Part shown: piece after piece, positions 2,791 to 56,083 of the stretch
How positions within the stretch are numbered: the stretch's first letter is position 1
How the letters are laid out: each line of letters opens with the position of its first letter
DNA from: Leptobrachium leishanense
Taxonomy: Eukaryota; Chordata; Amphibia; Anura; Megophryidae
Assembly (NCBI GenBank): GCA_009667805.1
Contig: CM019066.1
Coordinates: forward strand, 120,357,690 to 120,421,689
Direction of reading: 5' to 3'
Length of the DNA stretch: 64,000 nt
Position numbers and translations under genes: made by a program
Notes under the pieces: model-generated
Told to the model about the DNA's origin: nothing
Databases searched by the model: none
The model's input: the letters and a program-made list of their open reading frames with translations, nothing else

Positions 2791-2803
2791 TATGTTGTTG
2801 TTT

Positions 2804-3482
2804 TGAAGTGGAAATAGGCTGGAAGACGGCCGCCATTGTACACAGGCGGCCATCTTGTTCAGAATATTGGTTCACTTGTATATAACTAGACAGGTTTGTA
2901 GCTGAAACTAGAATGAGGTATACGTAGAAATTTAGGAATGCGTTTAGATTAGCAGAAAAGCAATTAAAGCTTTATGAAAGATCTCTGCTGTTCCTGGCAC
3001 GGAGGAGAAAAGCGAAGTAGATCCTCCAAGGTCGTTGGGGCCCGCAGAAAGACAAAGGAGTAGAGATCAGGCCAGGTGCCATCTGTAACAAGTGATTGTA
3101 GGCGCAGGGAGGAGGGCGCAGCCCGGAACAGTAAGAGCAATTAATTTTGATTTACTGAAACTAACACAAAGTTTGCCAATTTACAGCCAATTAATGAAAT
3201 GTCTTTGTATTAGCCAAAGGGAGGTATTAACCCACGTGGGGTGGAATAAAGTGTCATTGGGAGGTGGGCTAACTGGGATGTACCTAATTACGTATTTTTG
3301 GGTATAAGATCCCTTGCACGGGTGAAAGGGGGGGCTCACTCTTTGCGATTCAATCCTGTGTGGGCACTTGTGTGACGACACAATAAAGTTTGCCTTTCCT
3401 GAAGAGACTCGTGTTCTGACAATCCTTACTTGTGCCCGGTCCGGCGCCGTCTTGAAAGTGAATCTGTTTTTGTCCGCCTACA
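2804..3482 (+). repeat. 5' LTR of the provirus
   Basis: Starts TGAAGTGGAAATAGG and ends CCGCCTACA, giving the TG...CA ends of an integrated retrovirus. A TATA-like TATAAG lies at 3303-3308 and an AATAAA polyadenylation signal at 3382-3387, so U3, R and U5 are in the expected order. It differs from the 3' LTR by four small indels (near 2874, near 2883, 2997 and 3108) and by no substitution that I can find. Confidence 0.95.
3303..3387 (+). promoter_or_regulatory. LTR core promoter and polyadenylation signal
   Basis: TATAAG at 3303-3308 and AATAAA at 3382-3387 are about 80 bases apart, which fits transcription start and R-region polyadenylation of a retroviral LTR. The same pair is in the 3' LTR at 11697-11702 and 11776-11781. 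Confidence 0.7.
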
Positions 3483-3486
3483 TTTT

Positions 3487-3504
3487 TGGGGCATCGTGAG
3501 CCGG
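3487..3504 (+). promoter_or_regulatory. Probable primer-binding site, unusual
   Basis: TGGGGCATCGTGAGCCGG begins with TGG four bases after the LTR end, the place where a tRNA 3' end pairs. It shares parts with both the proline-type and the histidine-type sites but matches neither cleanly, so the primer tRNA is undetermined. Confidence 0.5.
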
Positions 3505-4601
3505 GATACGGGCCCTTTCCGGGCACACAGTAACGGGCTGCTGTGAACACAGTGCAGTGCTTGACTGCAGCGGGTGCGAGAATCCCGATGGTTGGGCGTC
3601 CGTTGAAGGTGAGCTGACATCTGCAGGCGCCAAGCAGGATTTCCTGTTCAGTGGACCTCGTCTCGTCCCAAACGGACCCCCGACCAGGGAACTGGGACAC
3701 CGAGTCTGAGGAAACAGCAAGCAGCGCCGGCGATAGGTAACGTGTCTTCTATGTTTTGTATGTCTAAAGGAGATACCGGTATCTAAGGGAAACGTCCGAC
3801 TGAGATAGACGGATAAGAGGATGCGATGGCCACCATCCTATTGGCATATCTAGCCCGCCGCTGATAGCACTGACATTGCTAAGGAGCCAGAGTGGCTAGC
3901 GGGTGTCTGGATTCGGGGGATTGAATGCCAATCAAAGGGTAGTTCTGTAAGAGAGGGAAAAGGTAGCCACGTGGAGTTGCATAAGTCAGTAGTCAGTGTT
4001 TGTAAACAGAGCTTCACCACGTGGGTAAAAGGGAAAGGAGGAGGGATTTTCTGTGACTGGGCTGAGAGCCTGAGTCAGTGCCTAGTGTGTACGTCGTGTA
4101 GTGAAAAGGGCTCATAATGGAGCCAGCGGTAGCTGCAGAGATAGTGGTGCCGGGTGGGTGAGATTACCCATAAGGCAAATTGGAATTGCAGACGGCAGTA
4201 GAGATATAGAACGGGGTGCACATAGTCACAAGCAGTTAAGAGTTAGAGTTCAAATTACGGGGTATAAGGAGCCACAGAGGAGGGAATGACCCCTCGGCTA
4301 GTAGAAAGAGTTGAAGTGTCTATGTTCTGTTATGTGATGAAAGCATCTGATACGGTATGTGTTGTGAATGAATTGACTCGAGTGCTGTGAGTGAACGTGC
4401 GCCTACTCGCTCCGCGAGGAAGCAAATACGAGTTTTGACCCCGAACGTACGTTTCCGGCTCAGGCGACTGCAGACGGCTACTGAAGGGGGAAGCGCCTGC
4501 AGACACGGATGAATTGGTGACTGAAGTATCAGACTGTAGATTTTAACTGTTGTTGAAATAATATATCTGTATTGCAAAGAGTACTGTTTTCAAGAATAAT
4601 A
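3505..4601 (+). other. Retroviral untranslated leader
   Basis: About 1.1 kb between primer site and matrix. A candidate splice donor for the env mRNA is GATAG/GTAACG at 3736/3737. Short open frames (for example 4101-4289) show no known domain. Packaging signals would be expected here but cannot be recognised by eye. Confidence 0.5.
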
Positions 4602-5052
4602 CTGGGTAACGGGTCATCTAAGCCCAAGAAGGTGAAGGAGGGTGAGACGCCCCTAGAATATATGGTGCGGAATTTCGAAGCATTATATAAAACTCATGAC
4701 TATGGTGTAGAATTTAAAAAAAAAAGAGAAGTTAAAAGTAATGTGTACAGTTGTGTGGCCGTTGTTAGTCCCAGGATGGCCAGAGCAGGGGTCAATGGAC
4801 CCGGAGTTGGTACAGAAGGTACATTCCCAAGTCACAGAGCAGTACGGACATCCTGAACAATACCCGTATATAGATATATGGAGATATTGTATTAAAAACA
4901 AGAGTCATTTTATAATGATAGCGGGGAGAAATAAGAAGCAGGACCCCCAAAATAATGGAGAGAGAGAGAGAGTGTTAGTAGAACAACCGGAGAGAGTGAT
5001 GTTTTACCCCCGTCCTATCCATCATGTTATGGGGCAGCTAGGAAAGTTTTGA
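4602..5052 (+). pseudogene. gag: gag matrix (MA) remnant
   Basis: Matrix domain of a gammaretroviral Gag, the part that targets Gag to the membrane. The N-terminus reads LGNGSSKPKK from a CTG at 4602; a Met-Gly start for myristoylation would be expected, so the start codon looks mutated. The first about 41 codons run in one frame, then an A-rich run (about 4715-4725) shifts to a second frame that carries the strongest similarity: a WPxxxPGWP segment, then DPELVQKVHSQV, then GHPEQYPYIDIW, the typical order of MLV-like matrix proteins. The frame ends with TGA at 5050-5052. The homopolymer makes a sequencing or assembly indel possible. Family assignment is strong; function is lost. Confidence 0.85.
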
Positions 5053-5278
5053 GTGCCGCGGTTGCGCGGACGGAGAGGGGGAGCGGGCAGCTGCTGTGTC
5101 TCGGTCAGCTCCCTCTGCTCCGTCCTGTGTGACTGAGGAAGAAGAGCAGGGCGCCGCGAATGGAGGAGATAGAGAGGCTCCACCAGAAAAGATTGAGATG
5201 CCCGATGGGAGCATATATAAATTAATTAATATTTTACGGAGTGAGATGATTGCGGTGCTGTATGGCTTGTGTGTGTGA
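5045..5278 (+). pseudogene. gag: gag p12-like segment with PSAP late motif
   Basis: After another frame change near 5045 the reading continues, rich in Ser, Ala, Glu and Pro, and holds PSAP at 5111-5122. PSAP/PTAP is the budding (late-domain) motif that recruits TSG101. Its position right after matrix fits the p12 region. The reading stops at TGA 5276-5278 and no capsid major homology region or zinc knuckle follows, so Gag is cut short here. Confidence 0.55.
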
Positions 5279-6060
5279 TTCGGACTGATTTTGTCCGATT
5301 GTGTTTATAATTGATCTATTAAACTAAAGTAGGAATGACTGAGAGGTTGTGAGATTGGGCTTCGTACTTGTTTTTTTTCCCTCTCTCCTCTCTTCCCTGG
5401 TGTATAGGCCCCCTCCTTTCTGACAGACTGTTTGAAAGGGCGAAGGGGGAGGGAGTCACTTTGTTTTTCTTTGCTCTCTGATAGCTGGAAAGAATAACCC
5501 TTTGTGTATCTGTGCAGCGAATTCAAAGTAAAGAAGAATAGGAAAAAAAAGGAATTACTATATTTAGCTAATTTTAATGTGTGTTACAATGGAATATTTG
5601 TTTGAAGTCTGTTGAGTGCAAGATATATGTTTATATTTTGTGTTGATATTATTCCAAAAGTTTTAGTTTTGTTCAGAGCTAGAATTAAATAAAAAAAAAA
5701 GGAAGTCCTGGTTTTTATATTGTTACACACAAACAATAATAAGTACGTAATAATATACAATATTGTCTATCAAAATATAAAATTTATTAACAAATTAAAT
5801 TGAAATATATGAAACGGTTAGAAAATTAATATTAAAAGAAAAAAATTCGAGAAATAATTAAAGTAGTTTTTCTTTACTGTTTCTAAAAGGTATGTTTTTG
5901 TTTAATTTTTGATGGAATGGTTATTTTATTGTTATGAGATGTTAGGAGTGGTCTTATGACAATGGAATAATTTATTTTTTTCAGATGTGGTATTAAGAGT
6001 CTGTTTTGGGCTACGGGAAAAGATCTCTGAAAATATTGTTTATACAATGTGTATATGTAT
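5279..6060 (+). other. AT-rich non-coding block replacing capsid, nucleocapsid and protease start
   Basis: About 780 bases that are markedly A/T-richer than the rest of the provirus, with stop codons in all frames. In an intact gammaretrovirus this interval would code for capsid, nucleocapsid and most of protease. It contains tracts that resemble splice acceptors (pyrimidine run then AG at 5985-5986; also near 5431 and 5484). It may be a captured non-coding sequence or deletion scar filled by foreign DNA. Confidence 0.6.
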
Positions 6061-8151
6061 ATGCCCGAATGTCCCATCCGGCTCCTGGGGCGGGATATCT
6101 TTTGCAAATTGCAAGCCCAAATTATGTTTTTTCCCGGGGGTCACGCTCAATTAGACCTGCCGGAGAGTGGCGGCTCTGCTCGGCAGCATATTCCAGCCAG
6201 TCCGCACAATCCACAATCTGTGAAAATCGCAGTAGTTATGTCAAAGGAGGAAGAATGGCGCACGGCACCTACTCTGTCTGCCACGCCGGATCCGCACGCA
6301 CTACTCCTTGGAATTCCTGAGGTGGGGGCGGAGGAAAACCCGCCCAGATGAGTTGAATCACAGCCCGGCGCAACACCGGTGGCTCTAAGACAATATTATA
6401 TCCCACAGAAAGCCAAGCAGAATATACAGATATATTTACAGAGATTTAAAGATCACGGCATATTAAAATTCTGCGTGTCACCATGGAACACACCCCTATT
6501 GCCAGTCTTGAAAGAGAGGACACAAGAGTATCGCCCTGTCCAAGATTTATGAGCTGTCAACGAGGCCACAGTAACACTACACCCTGTGGTTCCTAATCTA
6601 TACAATTTACTGGCGTTAATTCCCGGAGATACACAATATTACACAGTGCTTGATTTAAAAGACGCTTTCTTTTGCATCCGTCTGGCTCCAGCAAGCCAGC
6701 CCCTTTTTGCATTTCAGTGGGAAAAGTCTACCACGGGGGCGCGCTATCAAATGACGTGGACGCGCCTCCCTCAAAGTTTCAAAAAAAATTCGCCCACGAT
6801 TTTCAGGTGCGCGCTTAGCCAAGATCTCCTCGCCTTCAACGCTCAGCCAGACAAAGTAGTGTTACTACAATATGTTGATGATTTATTACTGGCTTCCCCC
6901 ACAGAAAAAGACTGTTTATCCGCCACAAAAGCTTTGCTACATCTGCTAAGCCAAGCAGGTTACAGAGTTTCTAAAAAGAAAGCACAAATATGTAAACGCA
7001 GTGTAAAATATCTGGGCTTCCAGTTAACAGGTACCAAACGTGCACTGGGGGCAGAAAGAAAAGAAGCAGTGTGCCGCATACCCCAACCAAAGACCAGGAG
7101 GCAAGTCCGTGAGTTCCTGGGAGCTGCAGGCTTCTGCCGCCTGTGGATCCCCAACTTCGCAGATATTGCCAAGCCGCTTCATCAGCCACGAAGGGGGGGA
7201 CAAGATCCCTTTCATTGGAAACAAGAGCAAACAGCAACAGGAGTATTGGTTCAGACTTTTGGCTCATGACTGAGGCCTGTGGCCTACCTCTCCAAGCAAC
7301 TCGACCCTGTGGCCTGCGGCCTACCCCCATGCCTGAAAGCAGTGGCTGCCACTGCAATGCTGATAGCAGAAGCAGACAAGCTGACCCTTGGACAGGTTCT
7401 TCATGTCAAGGTGCCCCACGCTGTCAAGGCTCTGCTGAATGTCAAAGGAGGTTACTGGTTCAGCAACAGCCGGATGACGAAGTACCAAGCCATGATGTGT
7501 GAAAATCCACGGGTTCATTTGGACCTCATCGCTACCTTAAACCCTGCTACTTTACTGCCTGACTGTGAAGAGGATCCAGATCATGAATGCCTCCAAGTTA
7601 TGGAAGAAGTGTTCAGTAGCAGGCCAGATTTGCAAGACGTACCCCTAGACAAATACGACCTACAGCTATTCACTGATGGTAGCAGCTATATGGATGATGG
7701 GAAGAAAGTCTCCGGCTATGCAGTAGTCTCAACAGAAGAAGTCATCGAAGCAAAGCCACTGCCAGGCCATACATCTGCACAATTGGCTGAAATAACAGCT
7801 TTAACCAGAGCCCTTGAAATTTCTGAAGGCAAAAGAGTAAATATCTATACAGATTCCAAGTACGCTTTCATGACAGTCCATGCACATGGTGCACTCTATA
7901 AAGAAAGAGGCCTACTCACGTCTTCAGAACAACAAATTAAATATGCGGCTGAAATCGCGGCCCTCCTGGAAGCAGTGTGGAAACCAAGTGCTGTCAGCAT
8001 CATGCACTGTCGTGGCCACCAAAAAGGCCGTGATGAAATTCCAAAAGGTAACAGACGCGCAGACCAAGCCGCAAAAGCAGCTGCAAAACCACCACCGCCA
8101 GCAGAAGACCAAGCTAAAGTATTGATCTGCAAGCAAGAACCGCAATCCTCT
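6061..8151 (+). pseudogene. pol: pol: protease tail, reverse transcriptase, RNase H
   Basis: One continuous frame interrupted by TGA at 6349, 6550 and 7267. It opens with PECPIRLLGRD, the C-terminal LLGRD of retroviral protease. Reverse transcriptase follows with VLDLKDAFF (first catalytic Asp near 6652), SQPLFAFQW, a TWTRLPQ segment and LLQYVDDLLLA (YVDD at 6871-6882), then the connection domain (AGFCRLWIP, RPVAYLSKQLDPVA). RNase H follows with FTDGSS (Asp at 7675), AEITALTRALEIS, IYTDSKYAF and GNRRADQAAK, covering the D-E-D-D set. The motif order and wording are gammaretroviral. The domain ends about 8100, where integrase should begin but the OGFR segment starts instead. The three TGA codons prevent a full product; 7267 is probably an old Trp codon and 6550 an old Arg codon. 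Confidence 0.95.
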
Positions 8152-8732
8152 ATGCCAAATTACGAGTTCTACATGAATTTGAGAAAGTTTGAACCCCACG
8201 GCAAGTTCATTGCAATAATATTGCACAAATGGCAAGATGATTATGAACTATTAGAACTCAATTATGATTACATTCAATGGCTTTTCCAACTCGGACACAA
8301 GGCCGAAATTTCTACTCTACTTCCCTAAATCCGCAGGAGACACGCCTAATGGTTAACACCTCAGAAGTTCAGCAAAGACTGCGCAGAGCCTACAACATGA
8401 TGCTGAAATTCTTCGGCGTAAAAATAGTGGGGGAGGAGGAAGACAAAGAAATAACCGAAGTTGAATGAGCAGAAAATTTCGCGTCACGTTTTGAAAATTT
8501 GACAATCAATCCTCACAATAATCTACGGATCACACGAATACTGCACAGTCTGGGAGAATTGGGAGCAGAAGAATATCAAGTCCCACTGGTGAGGTTCTTC
8601 CTCAAGGAGATCCTTATCAAGAACAGACTGCCAAGAATGAAGAAAAGTGCAATGAACTTTTTCATACCAGCAGTAAGAGATTCACAAGACAGACAAGATT
8701 TGTTATTTTTCGCATGGCGATACTATTTCCCA
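8152..8732 (+). pseudogene. ogfr-like: Captured opioid growth factor receptor (OGFR) conserved domain
   Basis: Host-type domain inside pol. It starts at MPNYEFYMNL (8152) and runs through KWQDDYELLELNYDYIQWLF in the pol frame; near 8300 the frame changes by one base and continues GRNFYSTSLNPQE, LRRAYNMMLKFFGVKI, then the diagnostic HNNLRITRILHSLGELG, then PLVRFFLKEIL and FAWRYY, ending about 8732. This order covers the whole conserved OGFR N-terminal domain (about 190 residues) known from the nuclear/perinuclear receptor for Met-enkephalin and its paralogues. There are no introns, which fits capture from mRNA. It carries one frame change and one TGA at 8466-8468. It replaces the integrase zinc domain and most of the catalytic core. 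The identification is from motif recognition, not a search. Function in the virus is unknown. Confidence 0.9.
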
Positions 8733-8734
8733 AA

Positions 8735-9385
8735 AGTATCCAGAACTGTTTGCAACAACTTGCCCGGCTACTGGGCATCACCTGGAAGCTACATACCGCC
8801 TACAGGCCCCAAAGTTCGGGAAAAGTTGAAAGAATGAACCGTACCCTAAAGACTTTGATGTCCAAACTGTGCCAAGAGACGTTATTGAGCTGGTTGGACT
8901 TGCTGCCGATAGTCCTTTTGCACATTAGGTGCAGACCAACCCAATTGAAGCTAAGTCCGTACGAACTTATGTTTGGACGGCCAACCCCTCTAATTAATGG
9001 ACTAAGGGGGGACCTTCGGGCATTGGGAGAAACTAAACTAAATGATCAGGTAGTAATGCTGGGTAAATCAATGCAGAAATTAAATACTTGGGTGGGGGAT
9101 AATATACCGCATTTTCTGTATCCTTCACTGCATAAGTATTGTCCGGGTGACTCAGTATGGGTAAAAGAGTGGAAAAATGATCCACTAGGTCCAAAATGGA
9201 GAGGTCCTTATCTTGTCCTGTTATCAACCCCCACAGCAGTAAAGGTTGCCGAGGTGGTCCCGTGGATACATCACTCCAGAGTGAAAGCAGCTGCAGCCAG
9301 TCCTGAACCAGCATGGAAGGTCGTTACCAACGAGACCAACCCGCTGAGGCTGAAGCTGACAAAGACCACAGCCATGAGCACCTAA
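8735..9385 (+). pseudogene. pol: Integrase C-terminal half
   Basis: Resumes retroviral homology after the OGFR segment, in a third frame. The reading LLGITWKLHTAYRPQSSGK leads into VERMNRTLK, which holds the third catalytic acid (Glu at 8828-8830) of the DDE core; the two Asp residues and the HHCC zinc domain are missing. Then come LLPIVLLHIR, SPYELMFGRP and the C-terminal GPKWRGPYLVLLS, a GPY/F module typical of gamma- and epsilonretroviruses. It stops with TAA at 9383-9385 and overlaps the start of env by 73 bases, as in gammaretroviruses. As it stands it could not integrate DNA. Confidence 0.92.
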
Positions 9386-10479
9386 ATGATCCTAACCCAG
9401 ATAATACAGAGGATCAACAAGTGGGTGTTTTGATGGGCACAGGTCCTGACCACCCGCCAACGGGGGATACCCACAGGGTGCTTTTTAGGGGCCCGGCCCC
9501 CACCCTTGATTATCCAGAAATGTTTTTTACTTTTGAAATTCCGGTGGGGAGGGATTGGGTTTATGTGACTGTGAAAAGAATTGCCCAAGGAATTCTGACA
9601 TTCGGGGCATTTGTGGTGCTGATTTTATATCTTGCTAATTTGATTTATGGACTCTCGCGTGGAGCAGGCCCTAATTGTACGGGCAATGTGGGGAAAGTGG
9701 ATATTTCCCATATCTGGAATGGTACGCACCCGGTGATGGAGAACCGTACCATGTGGAGACAAAAACGAGAGGCGCTATCTGGAACCAACCCAAGAGGACA
9801 CTTACTTGTGCAATTCAAATATGACTATGCTAAAAAGTCTGGGCAAACCGCATGCTGGGTGTGTAGTAGACTGCACCCAGAGACAATTCATATACCATTT
9901 GCCTCTGTTCCAATGAATTTGAGTATGTTTGTATCAGGGAATGTCACAATACATGCTGTCGATGCACCAAGGGAAAAGACAGAATCAGTCAGTCCCGGGT
10001 ACCCCATAATAGGACCAGTGTATCCACCAGAATGGTGTTTTCAACTAGGACCAGATAAAGAAATAAATAACGAGGGTGGGTTATGTAACTCAAGTCAGTT
10101 CAACTGGACATCATACATTTACATATTCAAAACAGGACAAAAGGCGAATTATTTATACATACGATGCAGGCAATTCACTAGAGACCAAGAGGCGGTGATT
10201 GGGAATGTGACCAATGGGAGGCAGGGTGCAGTGGATATGATGAGACGGCTGAGACACCTTGCGATAGAGATATCAAAGGGAACACTACATTCATCACCAT
10301 TTATAGTGAAAGGAGGGTACCAGGTGTGCTGTGAAAGGGTGTGTTACACATGGGTACCACCAACAATAACGGGAATGTGTTATTTGGCTAAGCTGGTCCC
10401 AATCCAGAGACTAAGGGGAGAAGACACAAACACAGACACAGAACTACAGAACTACACCCTAGGCTCCACTGGTGTTTGA
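9313..10479 (+). pseudogene. env: env, leader and surface (SU) part
   Basis: 388-codon open frame from ATG 9313. Residues 1-92 are hydrophilic, 93-114 are a hydrophobic span (ILTFGAFVVLILYLANLIYGL), so the signal/anchor lies far from the N-terminus, an arrangement seen in viruses with a long envelope leader peptide such as foamy viruses. A furin-type RQKR is at 149-152. CWVC at 181-184 resembles the gammaretroviral SU CXXC motif that bonds to TM. Nine N-glycosylation sequons (for example N121, N136, N144, N202, N210, N259, N264, N298, N380) and many Cys fit an SU glycoprotein. The frame ends at TGA 10477-10479, just before the SU/TM cleavage site, which is in another frame. Confidence 0.88.
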
Positions 10480-11125
10480 AAGACCAAAGAGAGAGTTGTT
10501 CGCGAAGATGGATCGAATATGGACATGGTTGCCAGCATGGACTGGATGGGGAGGAGAGATGATGAGGAGATTGAATAGCTATGTCAATTTGATGGATGAG
10601 ATTCTGAATAGAACCAGTATGGATATCCAGCTGCTGAATCTGGAAATGCGTGAGTTACGAAAGGTGCAGATGATACATGATATGGCGCTTGAGCAGATCA
10701 GTGCGGCCTTGAATGGATTGTGTGAAATGACAATGCACTATGAATGTTGCACCTTCATCAGAAACACTACACATGAAGTCCCAGATTATTACCAGGTAAT
10801 TCAAGATCACCAAGAGAAGGTAGCACAGTTGCAGGGTATAGCCAGGAGGATTGCTGCCGAAGGCTGGAATCCGCTCCGTGGGTTTGGAGCAATGGGAGAA
10901 TGGTTTGGTTCCATCTTGAGATTTATCTCACGGATTGGATCCATGATACTCATGATAGTGGTGATCTTGATCATAGGGATACTGATATACCGCATAGGGC
11001 TATGTTTATGGCCACTGTGCAAAACAGCACTGACACCTACACAAACACAGAAGATACCACTGATAATCCCACAGGGTATGTTCCCAGTGAAAGAAACCCC
11101 CCCAGTACAAGGAGTTTCAGAATAG
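10472..11125 (+). pseudogene. env: env, transmembrane (TM) part
   Basis: Continuation of env one base out of frame with SU; the first reading GTG codon is not a real start. Residues 4-7 are RPKR, a furin site for SU/TM cleavage. A heptad-like region leads to C84-EMTMHYE-C92C93, a CX7CC motif, one residue longer than the usual gammaretroviral CX6CC, which bonds SU to TM. Sequons are at N47 and N98. A second helical region (about 104-130), an aromatic membrane-proximal stretch (GAMGEWFGSILRF) and a membrane anchor (about 158-180) follow, then a cytoplasmic tail of about 35 residues. A clear fusion peptide after RPKR is hard to see. Confidence 0.9.
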
Positions 11126-11180
11126 TGGAGTGTAAGTATACAGTGCCACAAGTCCTGAGAAAAGATCCTGACACTTGAGC

Positions 11181-11191
11181 CAAGGGGGGAA
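11181..11191 (+). promoter_or_regulatory. Polypurine tract
   Basis: CAAGGGGGGAA directly before the 3' LTR; the purine run primes plus-strand DNA synthesis in retroviruses. Confidence 0.85.
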
Positions 11192-11876
11192 TGAAGTGGA
11201 AATAGGCTGGAAGACGGCCGCCATTGTACACAGGCGGCCATCTTGTTCAGAATATTGGTTCATATACTTGTAATAACTAGACAGGTTTGTAGCTGAAACT
11301 AGAATGAGGTATACGTAGAAATTTAGGAATGCGTTTAGATTAGCAGAAAAGCAATTAAAGCTTTATGAAAGATCTCTGCTGTTCCTGCGGCACGGAGGAG
11401 AAAAGCGAAGTAGATCCTCCAAGGTCGTTGGGGCCCGCAGAAAGACAAAGGAGTAGAGATCAGGCCAGGTGCCATCTGTAACAAGTGATTGTAGGCGCAA
11501 GGGAGGAGGGCGCAGCCCGGAACAGTAAGAGCAATTAATTTTGATTTACTGAAACTAACACAAAGTTTGCCAATTTACAGCCAATTAATGAAATGTCTTT
11601 GTATTAGCCAAAGGGAGGTATTAACCCACGTGGGGTGGAATAAAGTGTCATTGGGAGGTGGGCTAACTGGGATGTACCTAATTACGTATTTTTGGGTATA
11701 AGATCCCTTGCACGGGTGAAAGGGGGGGCTCACTCTTTGCGATTCAATCCTGTGTGGGCACTTGTGTGACGACACAATAAAGTTTGCCTTTCCTGAAGAG
11801 ACTCGTGTTCTGACAATCCTTACTTGTGCCCGGTCCGGCGCCGTCTTGAAAGTGAATCTGTTTTTGTCCGCCTACA
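11192..11876 (+). repeat. 3' LTR of the provirus
   Basis: Same sequence as the 5' LTR with a 4-base insertion (TATA near 11263), a 1-base loss, a 2-base insertion near 11397 and a 1-base insertion near 11500, and no substitution seen. TATAAG at 11697-11702 and AATAAA at 11776-11781. It is followed by a T run, so the target duplication (GTTT left, TTTT right) is not decisive. Confidence 0.95.
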
Positions 11877-11881
11877 TTTTT

Positions 11882-50038: not shown

Positions 50039-51448
50039 CAGTTGTGTTCAAAATTATTCAACCCCCAATGCTGTAAAGGGTTTTAGGGAATTTAGTGTAC
50101 ATTTGTAATTGTATTCAGAATGAAATCCTACAAGGACTTTTTAAAGAACCATATGCAACTAAAATGACATCAATTGGTTTTGTAATACAGTAGTAAATGT
50201 TTCTTTTGTGAATTCTTCATTGACACAATTATTCAACCCCTTAAAGACTACCACTCTGAAGAACAGAGGTTCATTCAAGTGTTTTCAATCAGGTATTGAA
50301 AACACCTGTGGATGTCACGGAGCAGCAATAAAGCATAATAAGCACCAATTAGGCAGCTTTAAAATGACTGTGATACTCAGCTCCTTCTAGACATTTACTG
50401 GTGTGGTTACAAACATGGTGAAGTCAAGAGAATGGTCCAGGAAGACAAGAGACGAGGTGATTACTCTTCACAGGAAGGGCAATGGCTATAAGAAGATTGC
50501 AAAGATGTTAAACATACCAAGAGAGACCATAGGAAGCATCATTCGCAAATTCAAGGCAAAGGGCACTGTTGAAACGCTACCTGGTCGTGGCAGAAAGAAG
50601 ATGCTGACTTCGACTGCTGTGCACTACCTGAAGCGTAGAGTGGAGAAACGTCCCCGTGTGACTGCTGAGGAACTGAGAAAAGATTTGTCAGATGTGGGTA
50701 CTGAAGTTTCAGCTCAGACAATACGGTGCACACTGCGTAATGAAGGCCTCTATGCCAGAACTCCCAGGCGCACCCACTTGCTGTCTCCAAAGAATAAGAA
50801 GAGTCGACTGCAGTATGCCAAAAGTCATGTGGACAAACCTACCATGAATTCTCTTCAGTACCAGGAGATATTGGATGACAATGTGATGCAGTCCGTCACA
50901 AACCTGAGGCTTGGGAGACGTTGGACCTTTCAACAGGACAATGATCCCAAGCATACCTCCAAGTCCACTAGAGCATGGTTGCAGATTAAAGGCTGGAACA
51001 TTTTGGAGTGGCCATCGCAGTCACCTGGCTTAAATCCGATTGAGAACCTCTGGTGGGACTTAAAGAAAGCAGTTGCAGTGCGCAAGCCTAAGAATGTGAC
51101 TGAACTGGAGACTTTTGCCCATGACGAATGGGCGAAGATACCCATAGATCGCTGCAAGACACTTGTGTCAAGCTATGCTTCACGTTTAAAAGCTGTTATA
51201 ACTGTAAAAGGATGTTGTTCTAAGTACTAAGATTGAATGTCACTTGGGGGTTGAATAAAACTGATAATGATGTGAGCACAGAAAAGACATTTGTGGTTAT
51301 TTCATTATAAATGTTATGTTATATTTGTCTGACCTACACGTGCCTCTTTGATTTAATTGTAAGCAAGATGACTGAATGATCAAAATCAATGTCAAACTGG
51401 CCAAAACACTCAATTTCAGTGGGGGTTGAATAATTTTGAACACAACTG
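50039..51448 (+). mobile_element. Tc1-type transposon with a deleted transposase
   Basis: TA at 50037-50038 and 51449-51450. Ends CAGTTGTGTTCAAAATTATT and, inverted, the same 20 bases. It lies in the 10.3-kb first zbbx intron, antisense to the gene. It looks young: the inverted ends are identical over more than 25 bases and the transposase frame is open. Confidence 0.95.
50415..51230 (+). CDS. Tc1 transposase, internally deleted
   Basis: 271 codons from ATG 50415. N-terminal helix-turn-helix (EVITLHRKGNGYKKIAKMLN then GSIIRKFKAKGTVETLPGRG), a second DNA-binding part (RVTAEELRKDLSDVG), RTHLLSPKNKKSRLQYAKSH, then after VDKP a jump to TMNSLQYQEIL. The skipped part, about 60-70 residues, normally has the WSDE motif with the first catalytic Asp. 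The second Asp (QQDNDPKHTSK) and the Glu (SPGLNPIENLWWDLKK) are present. The usual length is about 340. The frame stays open across the deletion, so it may be a selected or simply recent deletion; catalysis is not expected. Confidence 0.92.
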   Translation: MVKSREWSRKTRDEVITLHRKGNGYKKIAKMLNIPRETIGSIIRKFKAKGTVETLPGRGRKKMLTSTAVHYLKRRVEKRPRVTAEELRKDLSDVGTEVSAQTIRCTLRNEGLYARTPRRTHLLSPKNKKSRLQYAKSHVDKPTMNSLQYQEILDDNVMQSVTNLRLGRRWTFQQDNDPKHTSKSTRAWLQIKGWNILEWPSQSPGLNPIENLWWDLKKAVAVRKPKNVTELETFAHDEWAKIPIDRCKTLVSSYASRLKAVITVKGCCSKY

Positions 51449-52993: not shown

Positions 52994-54536
52994 TTTTTGA
53001 ATGTAAAAGTTTTTTATTGGAGTTCACACATATAATGATACAGCATTGCAGAAATGATGAAACTTCGGAGATCAAAAACATAGATTCCTATCATTGACAA
53101 TAGGCAATGCAAATGAAGCATCAGTGTTATCTGATATAAGGTCATTAGTGCGGTCTCCATTTTCCACAAACAGATATAATCCTAAACTAACATAAAACAC
53201 TAAACACGGCAGCACTACAGTCGTACACAGTGAAATATCTTATATCAAGGTTCCTGACTCGACAAACACCCTCCACCCCTCCCATGTATCATCAAACTGG
53301 CACATTGAGTTATTCGCGCTGTGGAACATTTCTTCATATTTACAAACACTTTCAAGGGTCATCATAACTTCTTTCATAGATGGGCAGAATGAGGAACGCC
53401 AATGTCTTGCAATGACCGTTTTTGCTGTCCCCAGTACCATAGAGATAAACCTCCTATGACGGATCTGAATAGTAATGGGTATGATATGTAGGAGATACAT
53501 TTTCGGGCATAGTGGGAGTCTAAGTAAAGTGCAGTGAGAAATTAGTCTACTGATTTTAACCCAATAACCCCCCAACGCGGGGCATAACCAAAAGGTATGT
53601 AGTAGGGAACCGAGGCCGGTAAGGCATCTCCAACAGAAGCCGGTAGTCCCCGAGATATGGGCCAAACGGGTTGGTGTTAGATACCATCTACACAGTAATT
53701 TAATATGGGCCTCACGTAGATTGGTGCTTCTAGAATATTTGTATATTGTGTCCATGGCATATGACCAGTCATCTACGGAGAGCGTGAAAGCTAAATCTTT
53801 TTCCCATTTAACCATATAGGGTAATTTTTTAGGTGGGTTCGGGGTTAAGAGGCTATTGTAACAGAGAGATAGCGGTTTCCTTTGACATTTCTTCCCCATA
53901 CACAGTTTGTGAAAAGCTGAAAGGTTCGTAGGTGTAAAAGAGGTCAGGCCCTTCTGGTGTAGAGCGTGCTTCACACGTAGGTAAGAAAAACAGTCACTCA
54001 ATGGGATGGCAAACTCCTGTACCAAGTCTGGAAAGGGTTTCAGGGAGTGGGGTGTAAAGAGCTGCCACACATGCGTCAAGCCGCGCAAAAACCAAGAATC
54101 TAAGTTTAAGTCTGGAATATAGCGGCACAGAACTCTGAGCGGGGCGAGATATAATAAGTCATAAGGCCGTACCAACGGGCGACCCCACTGACGCCAGGAC
54201 GTGAGGGAAAGCATCGAGGCGGGTAGTAAACCCATGGTGCTATTTCTAGGAAGGAGTGGAAGCCACAACAGGTCATGAAGTTTGTATGGGAAAATCATGG
54301 CGTTCTCCAACTGTAACCATAGAGGTGTTTCTTTGAGATGCATCGACGACAACAATTGGGCTAGCAAGGCTGCTTTATAATACGATTGTAAATCCAAAAA
54401 ACCCAACCCTCCGGTACGTCGCGGCGCGATGACTGTAGAGGCCGATACTCGAGGGGGCTTCCCTTTCCAAATGTGCGCATGCAGCAGTTTTTGCAGCCGG
54501 AGCAATAAATGCGCCGGTATGAAAACTGGAATGTTT
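52994..54536 (-). mobile_element. 5'-truncated L1 LINE
   Basis: Perfect 15-bp target duplication AGTTACAAGCATTTA at 52979-52993 and 54537-54551. 3' end at the left (short T run on the plus strand). Confidence 0.9.
53240..54505 (-). CDS. L1 ORF2 C-terminal region
   Basis: 421-codon open frame, the part after the reverse transcriptase of L1-clade ORF2. It reads FIWKGKPPR-like HAHIWKGKPPRVSASTVIAP, GGLGFLDLQSYYKAALLAQL, MVKWEKDLAFTLSVDDW, then LLCRWYLTPTRLAHISG and CWRCLTGLGSLLHTFWLCP, which is the CX2C...HX4C zinc-knuckle-like motif of L1 ORF2. The endonuclease and reverse transcriptase are missing through 5' truncation, as is usual. The intact frame and the clean duplication point to a recent insertion. 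Confidence 0.93.
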   Translation of the reverse strand: MLRLQKLLHAHIWKGKPPRVSASTVIAPRRTGGLGFLDLQSYYKAALLAQLLSSMHLKETPLWLQLENAMIFPYKLHDLLWLPLLPRNSTMGLLPASMLSLTSWRQWGRPLVRPYDLLYLAPLRVLCRYIPDLNLDSWFLRGLTHVWQLFTPHSLKPFPDLVQEFAIPLSDCFSYLRVKHALHQKGLTSFTPTNLSAFHKLCMGKKCQRKPLSLCYNSLLTPNPPKKLPYMVKWEKDLAFTLSVDDWSYAMDTIYKYSRSTNLREAHIKLLCRWYLTPTRLAHISGTTGFCWRCLTGLGSLLHTFWLCPALGGYWVKISRLISHCTLLRLPLCPKMYLLHIIPITIQIRHRRFISMVLGTAKTVIARHWRSSFCPSMKEVMMTLESVCKYEEMFHSANNSMCQFDDTWEGWRVFVESGTLI

Positions 54537-54609
54537 AGTTACAAGCATTTATAAAGCGCCAACAGGTTCCGTAGCACTATACAATGGGAAAGACATAATA
54601 ATAAATATA

Positions 54610-56083
54610 TAGTCAGGTCCAGAAATATTGGGACAGCGACACAATTCTAACATCTTTGGCTCTATACACCACCACAATGGAGTTGGAATGAAACAAACAC
54701 AATGTGCTTTAACTGCAGACGGTCAGCTTTAATTTGAGGGTATGTACATCACCAGACGCTGGGTTTCATCCCTGGTGATGCTCTGCCAGGCCTCTACTGC
54801 AATGGTCTTCAGTTCCTGCTTGTTCTTGGGGCATTTTCCCTTCAGTTTTGTCTTCAGCAAGTGAAATGCATCCTCAATGGGATCCAGGTCAGGTGATTGA
54901 CTTGGCCATTGCATAACATTCCACTTCGGTCCCTTCACAAACTCTTTGGTTGCTTTTGCAGCATGCTTTGGGTCATTGTCCATCTCCACTGTGAAGAGCC
55001 GTCCAATGAGTTCTGCAGCATTTGGCTGAATGTGAGCAGATAATATTGCCCGAAACACTTCAGAATTCATCCTGCTGCTTTTGTCAGCAGTCACATCATC
55101 AATAAATACAAGAGAACCAGTTCCATTGGCAGCCATACATGCCCACGCCATGACTCTACCTCCACCATGCTTCACTGATGAGGTGGTATGCTTAGGATCA
55201 TGAGCAGTTCCTTTCCTTCTCCATACTCTTCTCTTCCCATCTCTCTGGTACAAGTTGATCTTGGTCTCATCTGTCCATAGGATCTTGTTCCAGAACTGAA
55301 GGCTTTCTTAGGTGTTGTTTGGCAAACTCTAATCTGGCCTTCCTGTTTTTGAGGCTCACCAATGGTTTACAGCTTGTGTTGAACCCTCTGTATTCACTCT
55401 ACTGAAGTCTTCTCTTGATTGTTGACTTTGACACACATACACCTACCTCCTGGAGAGTGTTCTTGATCTGGCCAACTGTTGTGAAGGGTGTTTTCTTCAC
55501 CAGGGAAAGAATTCTTCGGTCATCCACCACAGTTGTTTACCGTGGTCTCCCGGGTCTTTTGGTGTTGCTGAGCTCACCGGTGCGTTCCTTCTTTTTGAGA
55601 ATGTTCCAAACAGTTGTTTTGGTCACAGCTAATGTTCTTGCTATCTCTCTGATGGGTTTGTTTTTTTCTTTCTTCAGCCTAATGATGGCTTGCTTCACTG
55701 ATAGTGACAGCTCTTTGGATCTCATCTTGAGAGTTGACAGCAACAGATTCCAAATGCAAATAGCACACTTGAAATGAACTCTGGGCCTTTTATCTGCACA
55801 TTGTAATTGGGGTAATGAGGGAATATCACACACCTGGCCATGGAACAGCTGAGAAGCCAATTGTCCCATTACTTTTGGTCCCTTAACAAGTGGGAGGCAC
55901 ATCTGCAAACTGCTGTAAGTCCTACACCGTTCACCTGAGTTGGATGTACATACCCTCAAATTAAAGCTGACAGTCTGCAGTTAAAGCACATTGTGTTTGT
56001 TTCATTCCAACTCCATTGAGGTGGTGTATAGAGCCAAAGATGTTAGAATTGTGTCGATGTCCCAATATTTCTGGACCTGACTG
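54610..56083 (-). mobile_element. Tc1-type transposon with long inverted repeats
   Basis: TA at 54608-54609 and 56084-56085. Inverted repeats of more than 100 bp (AGTCAGGTCCAGAAATATTG at the left, inverse at the right, continuing past TTTAACTGCAGAC). The transposase is on the minus strand, broken. Confidence 0.93.
54729..55725 (-). pseudogene. Tc1 transposase, frameshifted
   Basis: The N-terminal part (from ATG at 55725) reads SLSVKQAIIRLKKEKNKPIR then IARTLAVTKTTVWNILKKKE and RPGRPR, a helix-turn-helix with a GRPR AT-hook-like box. Near 55290-55250 a frame gives WTDETKINLYQRDG with the first catalytic Asp. The C-terminal part (55253-54729) has GGGRVMAWACMAANGTG, then VEMDNDPKHAAKA (second Asp) and WPSQSPDLDPIE (Glu). 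All three acids are thus visible, but one or more frame breaks lie in the middle. Confidence 0.9.

What the first reader, a model, noticed from the sequence alone, without database searches (positions are those of the whole stretch)
8152..8732. Retroviral capture of an OGFR (opioid growth factor receptor) domain inside pol
Seen: between RNase H and the C-terminal half of integrase lies a 190-residue foreign domain without introns, with HNNLRITRILHSLGELG, YELLELNYDYIQWLF, LRRAYNMMLKFFG and FAWRYY in the order of the conserved OGFR domain. Known: host mRNA capture by retroviruses typically replaces viral genes and makes the virus defective; OGFR is a host protein that binds Met-enkephalin and restrains growth. 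Inferred: two template switches with an OGFR-type mRNA replaced the integrase zinc domain and most of its core. I know of no description of an OGFR-transducing retrovirus.
Basis: partly seen in the sequence, partly recalled or inferred. Interest (0 to 1): 0.93.

Follow-up and report, generated by a model that had tools for sequence, protein, structure and literature searches.

The report
Frog retrovirus carrying a host OGFR domain
A family of frog endogenous retroviruses carries, inside its polymerase gene, a domain copied from the host's opioid growth factor receptor; selection has kept that domain intact as in a working viral part, and the copy in this window is a broken, recently spread relative.

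Summary
The OGFR domain is really there. Pfam OGFr_N covers profile positions 3-198 in three pieces at about 8143-8741 (E 8.5e-12, 2e-11, 1.2e-31), inside an LTR-flanked provirus.

The capture story needs correcting. Related proteins of the frog Leptobrachium leishanense have RNase H, OGFr and a complete integrase in one chain (P0020, P0122). OGFR was inserted at the RNase H/integrase boundary. The missing integrase part is a later deletion, shared by 40 of 40 copies compared, the window's included.

The source is a spliced host mRNA: the host gene splits this domain over five exons, the viral copies are continuous. Trees favour one capture from a Leptobrachium-lineage OGFR. Decayed copies hold a longer OGFR insert.

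It is not a dead passenger in the whole lineage. Among 24 open copies median dN/dS of OGFr is 0.14-0.26, near but mostly above RNase H, against 0.85 in the stop-bearing amplified subfamily. Lentiviral dUTPase occupies the same Pol slot (PMC4531489, passages).

What the domain does for the virus is inferred only. The listings show no description of it.

The parts
2804..3482 (+). 5' LTR (TG...CA); flank GTTT on the left
   Evidence: boundaries agree with the LTR pairs of about 679 bp and 4-bp target duplications of other copies
4557..5052 (+). matrix-like gag remnant in two overlapping frames; no capsid or nucleocapsid recognised
   Evidence: ORFs; read by eye, no Pfam match for the ORF 4557-4853; the ORF at 4711-5052 was not scanned
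6040..7269 (+). protease tail and reverse transcriptase (RVT_1), frame 1, with in-frame stops at 6349, 6550 and 7267
7270..8142 (+). RT connection and RNase H, same open frame as the first OGFr piece
   Evidence: RNase_H E 3.6e-27
8143..8292 (+). OGFr_N piece 1 (profile 3-52), in frame with RNase H
   Evidence: E 8.5e-12
8283..8441 (+). OGFr_N piece 2 (profile 50-102), other frame; 28 of 40 copies compared have OGFr in one frame
   Evidence: E 2e-11
8469..8741 (+). OGFr_N piece 3 (profile 108-198), after an in-frame stop at 8466; 39 of 40 copies compared carry at least one stop inside OGFr
   Evidence: E 1.2e-31
8729..8741 (+). deletion junction: OGFr is joined directly to the late integrase core; about 200 residues present in relatives (end of OGFr, integrase zinc domain, most of the core) are missing
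   Evidence: match to P0122 jumps from residue 460 to 665; shared by 40 of 40 copies compared, the window's included
8742..9382 (+). late integrase core and MLV-type integrase C-terminal domain, frame 2
   Evidence: MLVIN_C E 2.2e-18
9307..11125 (+). env, in two ORFs with a frame change near 10450
   Evidence: matches to P0125, P0011
11182..11191 (+). polypurine tract
   Evidence: sequence; by eye
11192..11876 (+). 3' LTR, 0 substitutions against the 5' LTR, 4 small indels inside

Best explanation
A gammaretrovirus-like lineage of a Leptobrachium-lineage frog picked up, most likely once, a spliced OGFR mRNA at the boundary between RNase H and integrase. The insert first held nearly the N-terminal 275 residues; later the first 60-odd residues were trimmed (order inferred from decayed, less diverged copies), and the globular OGFr domain was kept in frame as a Pol module under purifying selection (shown). 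The lineage kept a complete integrase, and the segment that normally precedes integrase still follows OGFr (shown). So after processing the domain should travel as a C-terminal extension of RT-RNase H, or be released if a hydrophobic-Cys motif just upstream is a protease site (inferred). Packaged with RT and integrase, it most likely acts early after entry by engaging or competing for the partners of host OGFR, a growth-restraining protein of the nuclear periphery (recalled), to favour nuclear access or cycling of the infected cell (inferred; about 0.35 for this role). The window copy belongs to a young amplified subfamily that lost part of integrase and OGFr coding and was probably mobilised in trans by less broken relatives (inferred). 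The confidence given is for capture, place and selection, not for the role.
For: P0020 holds RNase H - OGFr_N - H2C2 - rve - MLVIN_C in one chain and P0013 the same up to rve; P0122, with 49 cluster members, is listed with all these domains. At DNA level 5 of 28 loci examined have RNase H, OGFr and the start of integrase in one frame without stops. Eight OGFr-lacking relatives have 0-5 aligned residues where nine OGFr-bearing ones have roughly 190-300. The 27 viral rows lie on one side of a 100/100 branch, and with three Leptobrachium OGFR rows on one side of a 99/91 branch (unrooted); uniting the main or the P0033-type viral clade with host OGFR is rejected, p 1.5e-5 and 0.031. In the integrase tree the OGFr-bearing rows and P0125, whose boundary cannot be read, make one clade (100/99). 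Host exons inside the domain end after aa 84, 111, 133 and 183. Decayed copies L064 and L066 hold OGFR aa 3/4 to about 258-275 between RNase H and integrase. dN/dS 0.14-0.26 in open copies against 0.85 in the stop-bearing subfamily. Changes avoid host-conserved sites: rho 0.47, 0 of 5000 stratified permutations; internal branches 0.32 against 1.87 changes per column, terminal 0.92 against 1.86. 13 of 150 scored places have an open frame of at least 1000 aa through OGFr. LTR mismatches 0, 0, 3, 0 in four complete pairs of the window's subfamily. AlphaFold2 of P0004: 18 of 20 ten-residue blocks of the OGFr part at pLDDT 87-97.
Against: OGFr evolves faster than integrase (about 52% against 75% identity for P0033, each against a single main-clade protein), and the P0033 lineage has lost the C-terminal end. 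Within the five P0033-type rows the site test is not significant (rho 0.12, p 0.087). Two integrase bins show dN/dS 0.42-0.5 (8 pairs), so that control is noisy. The contrast value 0.85 rests on 60 differences. The AU test does not reject a viral clade nearest to Pelobates (p 0.078). UniRef proteins are gene models and may splice around breaks. No experiment or structure ties the domain to any activity; Foldseek finds no solved structure with E <= 0.001. The window copy itself cannot make the protein, and the dated young LTR pairs are of its defective subfamily, not of open copies.
Confidence: 0.85

Rival explanations
1. Passenger: OGFr was captured by chance and has no use; it spread because the provirus spread.
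For: True of the amplified subfamily to which the window copy belongs: 39 of 40 copies compared have a stop in OGFr and dN/dS is 0.85.
Against: Open-frame lineages show dN/dS 0.14-0.26 and avoidance of host-conserved sites, strongest on internal branches; the three viral clades all keep it.
Confidence: 0.08
2. One reading: two template switches with OGFR mRNA replaced the integrase zinc domain and core in this provirus, giving a transducing defective virus.
For: The window copy has exactly that layout.
Against: Relatives with OGFr and integrase zinc domain and core; the deletion junction is one shared derived state; OGFr stops at the junction while relatives continue to a host-homologous end.
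Confidence: 0.03
3. The host co-opted OGFr-bearing pol ORFs (for example as a defence against the virus), and selection on the host explains the low dN/dS.
For: Many open frames persist in the genome.
Against: The signal is spread over dispersed copies and subfamilies and over internal branches, as expected for selection during replication, not at one locus; RNase H of relatives shows a similar level.
Confidence: 0.06
4. About the role only: the viral domain keeps an ancient nucleotide- or ADP-ribose-linked activity of OGFr_N rather than acting on growth control.
For: An IMG/VR contig encodes a NADAR-OGFr_N fusion (L001) and another has OGFr_N next to a macro domain (L003).
Against: Only two contexts, distant proteins (31-37% identity); no catalytic signature tested.
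Confidence: 0.12

Closest known systems
dUTPase of non-primate lentiviruses (PMC4531489, passages read)
   Same: An extra domain in Pol exactly between RNase H and integrase, made as part of the Gag-Pol polyprotein
   Different: dUTPase is an enzyme of about 130 residues; OGFr is a host regulatory domain with no known enzyme activity (recalled) and a clear host donor, in a gamma-type virus
Oncogene-transducing retroviruses such as those with v-Src or v-sis (PMC13297096, passages read)
   Same: Host sequence carried in a provirus
   Different: In the passages v-sis comes with a disrupted env and a need for helper virus; here the insert is in frame inside Pol next to a complete integrase, has diverse descendants, and comes from a growth inhibitor (recalled)
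Gamma-type endogenous retroviruses of Pelobates, Podarcis, Anolis and caecilians (P0136, P0124, P0131, P0134, P0126, P0129, P0135, P0138)
   Same: Pol domain order; 44-60% identity in integrase or in the pol stretches aligned
   Different: Seven of these with a readable RNase H/integrase boundary, and P0123 of unknown source, have no insert; P0136 is cut there and cannot be read
OGFr_N proteins of Marseillevirus LCMAC202 and of IMG/VR contigs
   Same: OGFr_N in viruses
   Different: Separate genes of DNA viruses, distant from vertebrate OGFR

Membership tests
OGFr_N domain (PF04664) | Score above the curated cut-off of 22 bits over the conserved region | tested here: met
   45.5, 44.2 and 110.3 bits for three pieces, profile 3-198 of 208
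OGFR (vertebrate gene) descent | Groups with OGFR of a frog in a tree | tested here: met
   With Leptobrachium OGFR 99/91; Pelobates as nearest not rejected, p 0.078
Processed (mRNA-derived) capture | Continuous across positions where the host gene has introns | tested here: met
   Host exon ends after aa 84, 111, 133, 183, inferred from exon matches, lie inside the viral segment
Gamma-type endogenous retrovirus | LTRs with 4-bp target duplication, RT, RNase H, MLV-type integrase C-terminus, env | tested here: met
   window duplication imperfect (GTTT/TTTT); env recognised by likeness to P0125, not by Pfam
Gamma-type endogenous retrovirus | Complete gag | tested here: inconclusive
   One gag-region ORF (4557-4853) scanned, no Pfam match; capsid and nucleocapsid not recognised by eye; other copies not examined
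Transducing defective retrovirus | Host insert replaces viral genes needed for replication | tested here: not met
   Relatives keep RNase H and integrase around OGFr; the window subfamily's deletion is later
Pol accessory module like lentiviral dUTPase | Located between RNase H and integrase in one frame | tested here: met
Pol accessory module like lentiviral dUTPase | Released as a separate mature protein | not testable with these tools
   Cleavage sites inferred only from alignment
Opioid growth factor receptor in function | Binds Met-enkephalin, restrains cell growth | not testable with these tools
   recalled function; no assay

The most novel reading that the evidence does not exclude
A retrovirus lineage has made a host growth-control domain a permanent, selected part of its Pol polyprotein: captured once from spliced OGFR mRNA, trimmed to the globular domain, inherited through three deep clades (in one of them, P0027/P0086, little viral context can be read), with relatives that moved recently in a living frog genome, so that the virus delivers an OGFR competitor with its core.
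Probability: 0.6. Interest if true: 0.92.

Novelty: new variant of a known kind. Interest (0 to 1): 0.87.

Why it matters
Captured host genes in retroviruses are best known as oncogenes that often cost the virus its own genes (recalled; PMC13297096 passages for v-sis). Here a growth inhibitor's domain has lived inside Pol through much viral evolution under selection not far from that on RNase H. It shows the RNase H/integrase boundary as a slot that accepts new modules, in a second virus group beside lentiviral dUTPase. It also offers a handle on what the poorly understood OGFr domain does, since a virus has kept only the globular part.

Tried and rejected

Dropped before counts: dN/dS used 24 of 40 fetched loci (16 had a frame change, stop or short match); of 276 possible pairs 241 gave values and 193 fell in the bins shown (dS 0.02-2). 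I had chosen 39 of those 40 places from rows listed without stops, which favours open copies. RNase H used 17 and integrase 9 of 28 loci. One search used 28 of 40 copies (one frame, stops allowed). LTR dating: 10 copies fetched, 4 complete pairs, 4 partial without mismatch, 2 with one LTR not found in the fetched stretch. The trees used 26 viral proteins, 31 host proteins and one window piece, chosen by me from the 120 proteins listed of 485 found plus P0122; several viral proteins with partial OGFr were left out. The site test used 24 viral and 24 host rows. The 365 unlisted proteins were not seen.

Full report
What is in the window. A provirus lies at 2804-11876 between two LTRs with no substitution between them and four small indels. 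Its pol has in-frame stops at 6349, 6550 and 7267. After RNase H the same frame runs straight into an OGFr_N domain. The domain continues after a frame change near 8286 and a stop at 8466, and ends at about 8741, where it is joined to the last part of the integrase core. Together the three pieces cover profile positions 3-198 of 208.

What it is part of. The window lies in a 3.54-Gb genome. A UniRef host protein, P0034, whose species name is cut in the listing after 'Leptobrachiu', matches exons of this genome at 100%, so the genome is probably of Leptobrachium leishanense; the genome itself is unnamed. A protein search with the stretch around the first OGFr piece found eight proteins, all Leptobrachium (L. 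leishanense where the name is not cut); six of the eight have a Pfam RNase H or integrase domain beside OGFr_N. Two further searches listed more, and every listed protein with OGFr_N and a viral domain is again Leptobrachium (120 of 485 listed, 52 of 52). P0020 has RNase H, OGFr_N, H2C2, integrase core and MLVIN_C in one chain, P0013 the same up to the core; P0122 has 49 cluster members. Aligned with eight relatives that lack OGFr, nine OGFr-bearing proteins show one extra block at the RNase H/integrase boundary; the segment that leads into integrase follows it. At DNA level 5 of 28 loci examined have RNase H, OGFr and the start of integrase in one frame without stops. So OGFR was inserted, in frame, and integrase was kept. 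The window copy's loss of about 200 residues (end of OGFr, zinc domain, most of the core) is secondary: 40 of 40 copies compared share it, the window's own included.

Where it came from. In the OGFr tree the 27 viral rows are one side of a 100/100 branch, and together with three Leptobrachium OGFR rows one side of a 99/91 branch (the tree is not rooted, and I take the other vertebrates as outside). Nearest kinship to Pelobates OGFR instead is disfavoured but not rejected (p 0.078), while uniting either large viral group alone with host OGFR is rejected (p 1.5e-5 and 0.031). The integrase tree has the same two viral groups; one row without a readable boundary, P0125, lies among the OGFr-bearing rows. 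The host OGFR gene sits on contig C12, with a 92% tandem relative 15 kb away. Matches of its exons end after residues 31, 62, 84, 111, 133 and 183; the first exon lies beyond the tandem relative, so the gene models may mix the two. The viral domain is continuous over the last four of these, that is over five exons, so the donor was a spliced mRNA. Decayed copies hold a longer OGFR insert: in L064 and L066 host residues 3 or 4 to about 258-275 lie between RNase H and integrase at 57-69% identity, with stops or frame changes. I read this as the state soon after capture, though these copies are not dated. The younger lineages kept only the globular domain.

Does it do anything. Three tests agree. 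First, replacements in viral OGFr avoid sites conserved in host OGFRs: Spearman 0.47, 0 of 5000 permutations within residue type. The bias is stronger on internal branches (0.32 against 1.87 changes per column in the conserved and variable thirds) than on terminal ones (0.92 against 1.86), as expected if selection acts while the virus replicates and ends after insertion. Within the five P0033-type rows alone the correlation is not significant (rho 0.12, p 0.087). Second, among 24 open copies the median dN/dS of OGFr is 0.22, 0.20, 0.26, 0.18 and 0.14 over dS bins 0.02-0.1, 0.1-0.2, 0.2-0.4, 0.4-0.8 and 0.8-2 (18, 15, 10, 13 and 137 pairs). For RNase H it is 0.28, 0.11, 0.10 and 0.10 (24, 25, 2 and 23 pairs; none in 0.4-0.8), for integrase 0.13, 0.12, 0.5, 0.42 and 0.06 (9, 6, 1, 7 and 5 pairs). 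These pairs are not independent, dS is near saturation in the last bin, and open copies were favoured in the choice. Third, the contrast: in the amplified subfamily of the window copy, where 39 of 40 copies compared carry a stop in OGFr, dN/dS is 0.85 (46 replacements, 14 silent changes in 14 disjoint pairs; 0.84 over all pairs). I conclude that OGFr is a selected part of Pol in the replicating lineages and a dead passenger in the window's own subfamily.

How active. Four complete LTR pairs of sister copies differ at 0, 0, 3 and 0 of about 679 sites, with perfect 4-bp target duplications; four partial pairs show no mismatch. All are of the defective subfamily; open copies were not dated. First-look candidates number 2719, 4241 and 3640 in three searches; these are not confirmed copies. 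13 of 150 scored places have an open frame of at least 1000 residues through OGFr. A survey of vertebrate genomes lists L. leishanense among threatened species with invading retroviruses and does not use the word OGFR in its main text (PMC10435555, passages only). Whether its elements are these I cannot tell.

How it most likely works. Shown: position, frame, retained integrase leader, retained globular domain, selection. The predicted fold is a compact helical domain (18 of 20 ten-residue blocks at pLDDT 87-97). Inferred: because the leader of integrase lies after OGFr, the domain should stay on RT-RNase H or be freed by a second cut upstream, where a short K-[VI]-L-[LIV]-C motif stands in 6 of 9 viral sequences aligned. 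Either way it would enter the cell with the core. Host OGFR is known as a growth-restraining protein that moves between nuclear periphery and nucleus (recalled, not tested). I therefore think most likely that the viral domain competes for or borrows OGFR partners to help nuclear access or keep the cell cycling; I give this role about 0.35. A nucleotide- or ADP-ribose-linked role is a rival, from a NADAR-OGFr fusion and a macro-domain neighbour in IMG/VR contigs.

What is known. Lentiviral dUTPase lies in the same place in Pol (PMC4531489, passages), so the slot is known; oncogene capture is known (PMC13297096, passages). No paper listed (15 of 43 listed; 15 of 41 listed), 61 and 108 appears by title or abstract start to describe OGFR in a retrovirus; that library lacks most subscription journals and preprints. 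Among predicted viral structures the only match at E <= 0.001 was a Marseillevirus OGFR protein.

Noticed in passing
L001:7350-8420; L003:2246-3727; L002:7899-8411: OGFr_N occurs in IMG/VR contigs (probably phages): fused to a NADAR domain (L001), next to a macro domain (L003), alone (L002). This hints at an old link of OGFr_N with ADP-ribose or NAD chemistry.
   Followed up: partly
L064, L066 (own genome, contigs C3 and C6): Decayed proviral copies carry OGFR from near its start codon, closer to the host gene (57-69%) than the young copies compared: perhaps a fossil of the capture.
   Followed up: partly
own genome C12:9481000-9520600: Two OGFR genes in tandem about 15 kb apart, 92% alike in the last exon; UniRef models may mix their exons.
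   Followed up: partly
window 50391-51230 (+) and 54729-55307 (-): ORFs that read like Tc1/mariner transposases (by eye).
   Followed up: no
window 53240-54538 (-): 432-residue ORF that reads like the end of a LINE ORF2 (by eye).
   Followed up: no
P0136 (Pelobates fuscus), P0141 (Microcaecilia): Gene models of related pol jump from RNase H into the integrase core without the zinc domain: annotation splicing or a real deletion.
   Followed up: no
window 2800-2803 and 11877-11880: Target duplication of the window provirus is imperfect (GTTT/TTTT), while four sister copies have perfect 4-bp ones.
   Followed up: no
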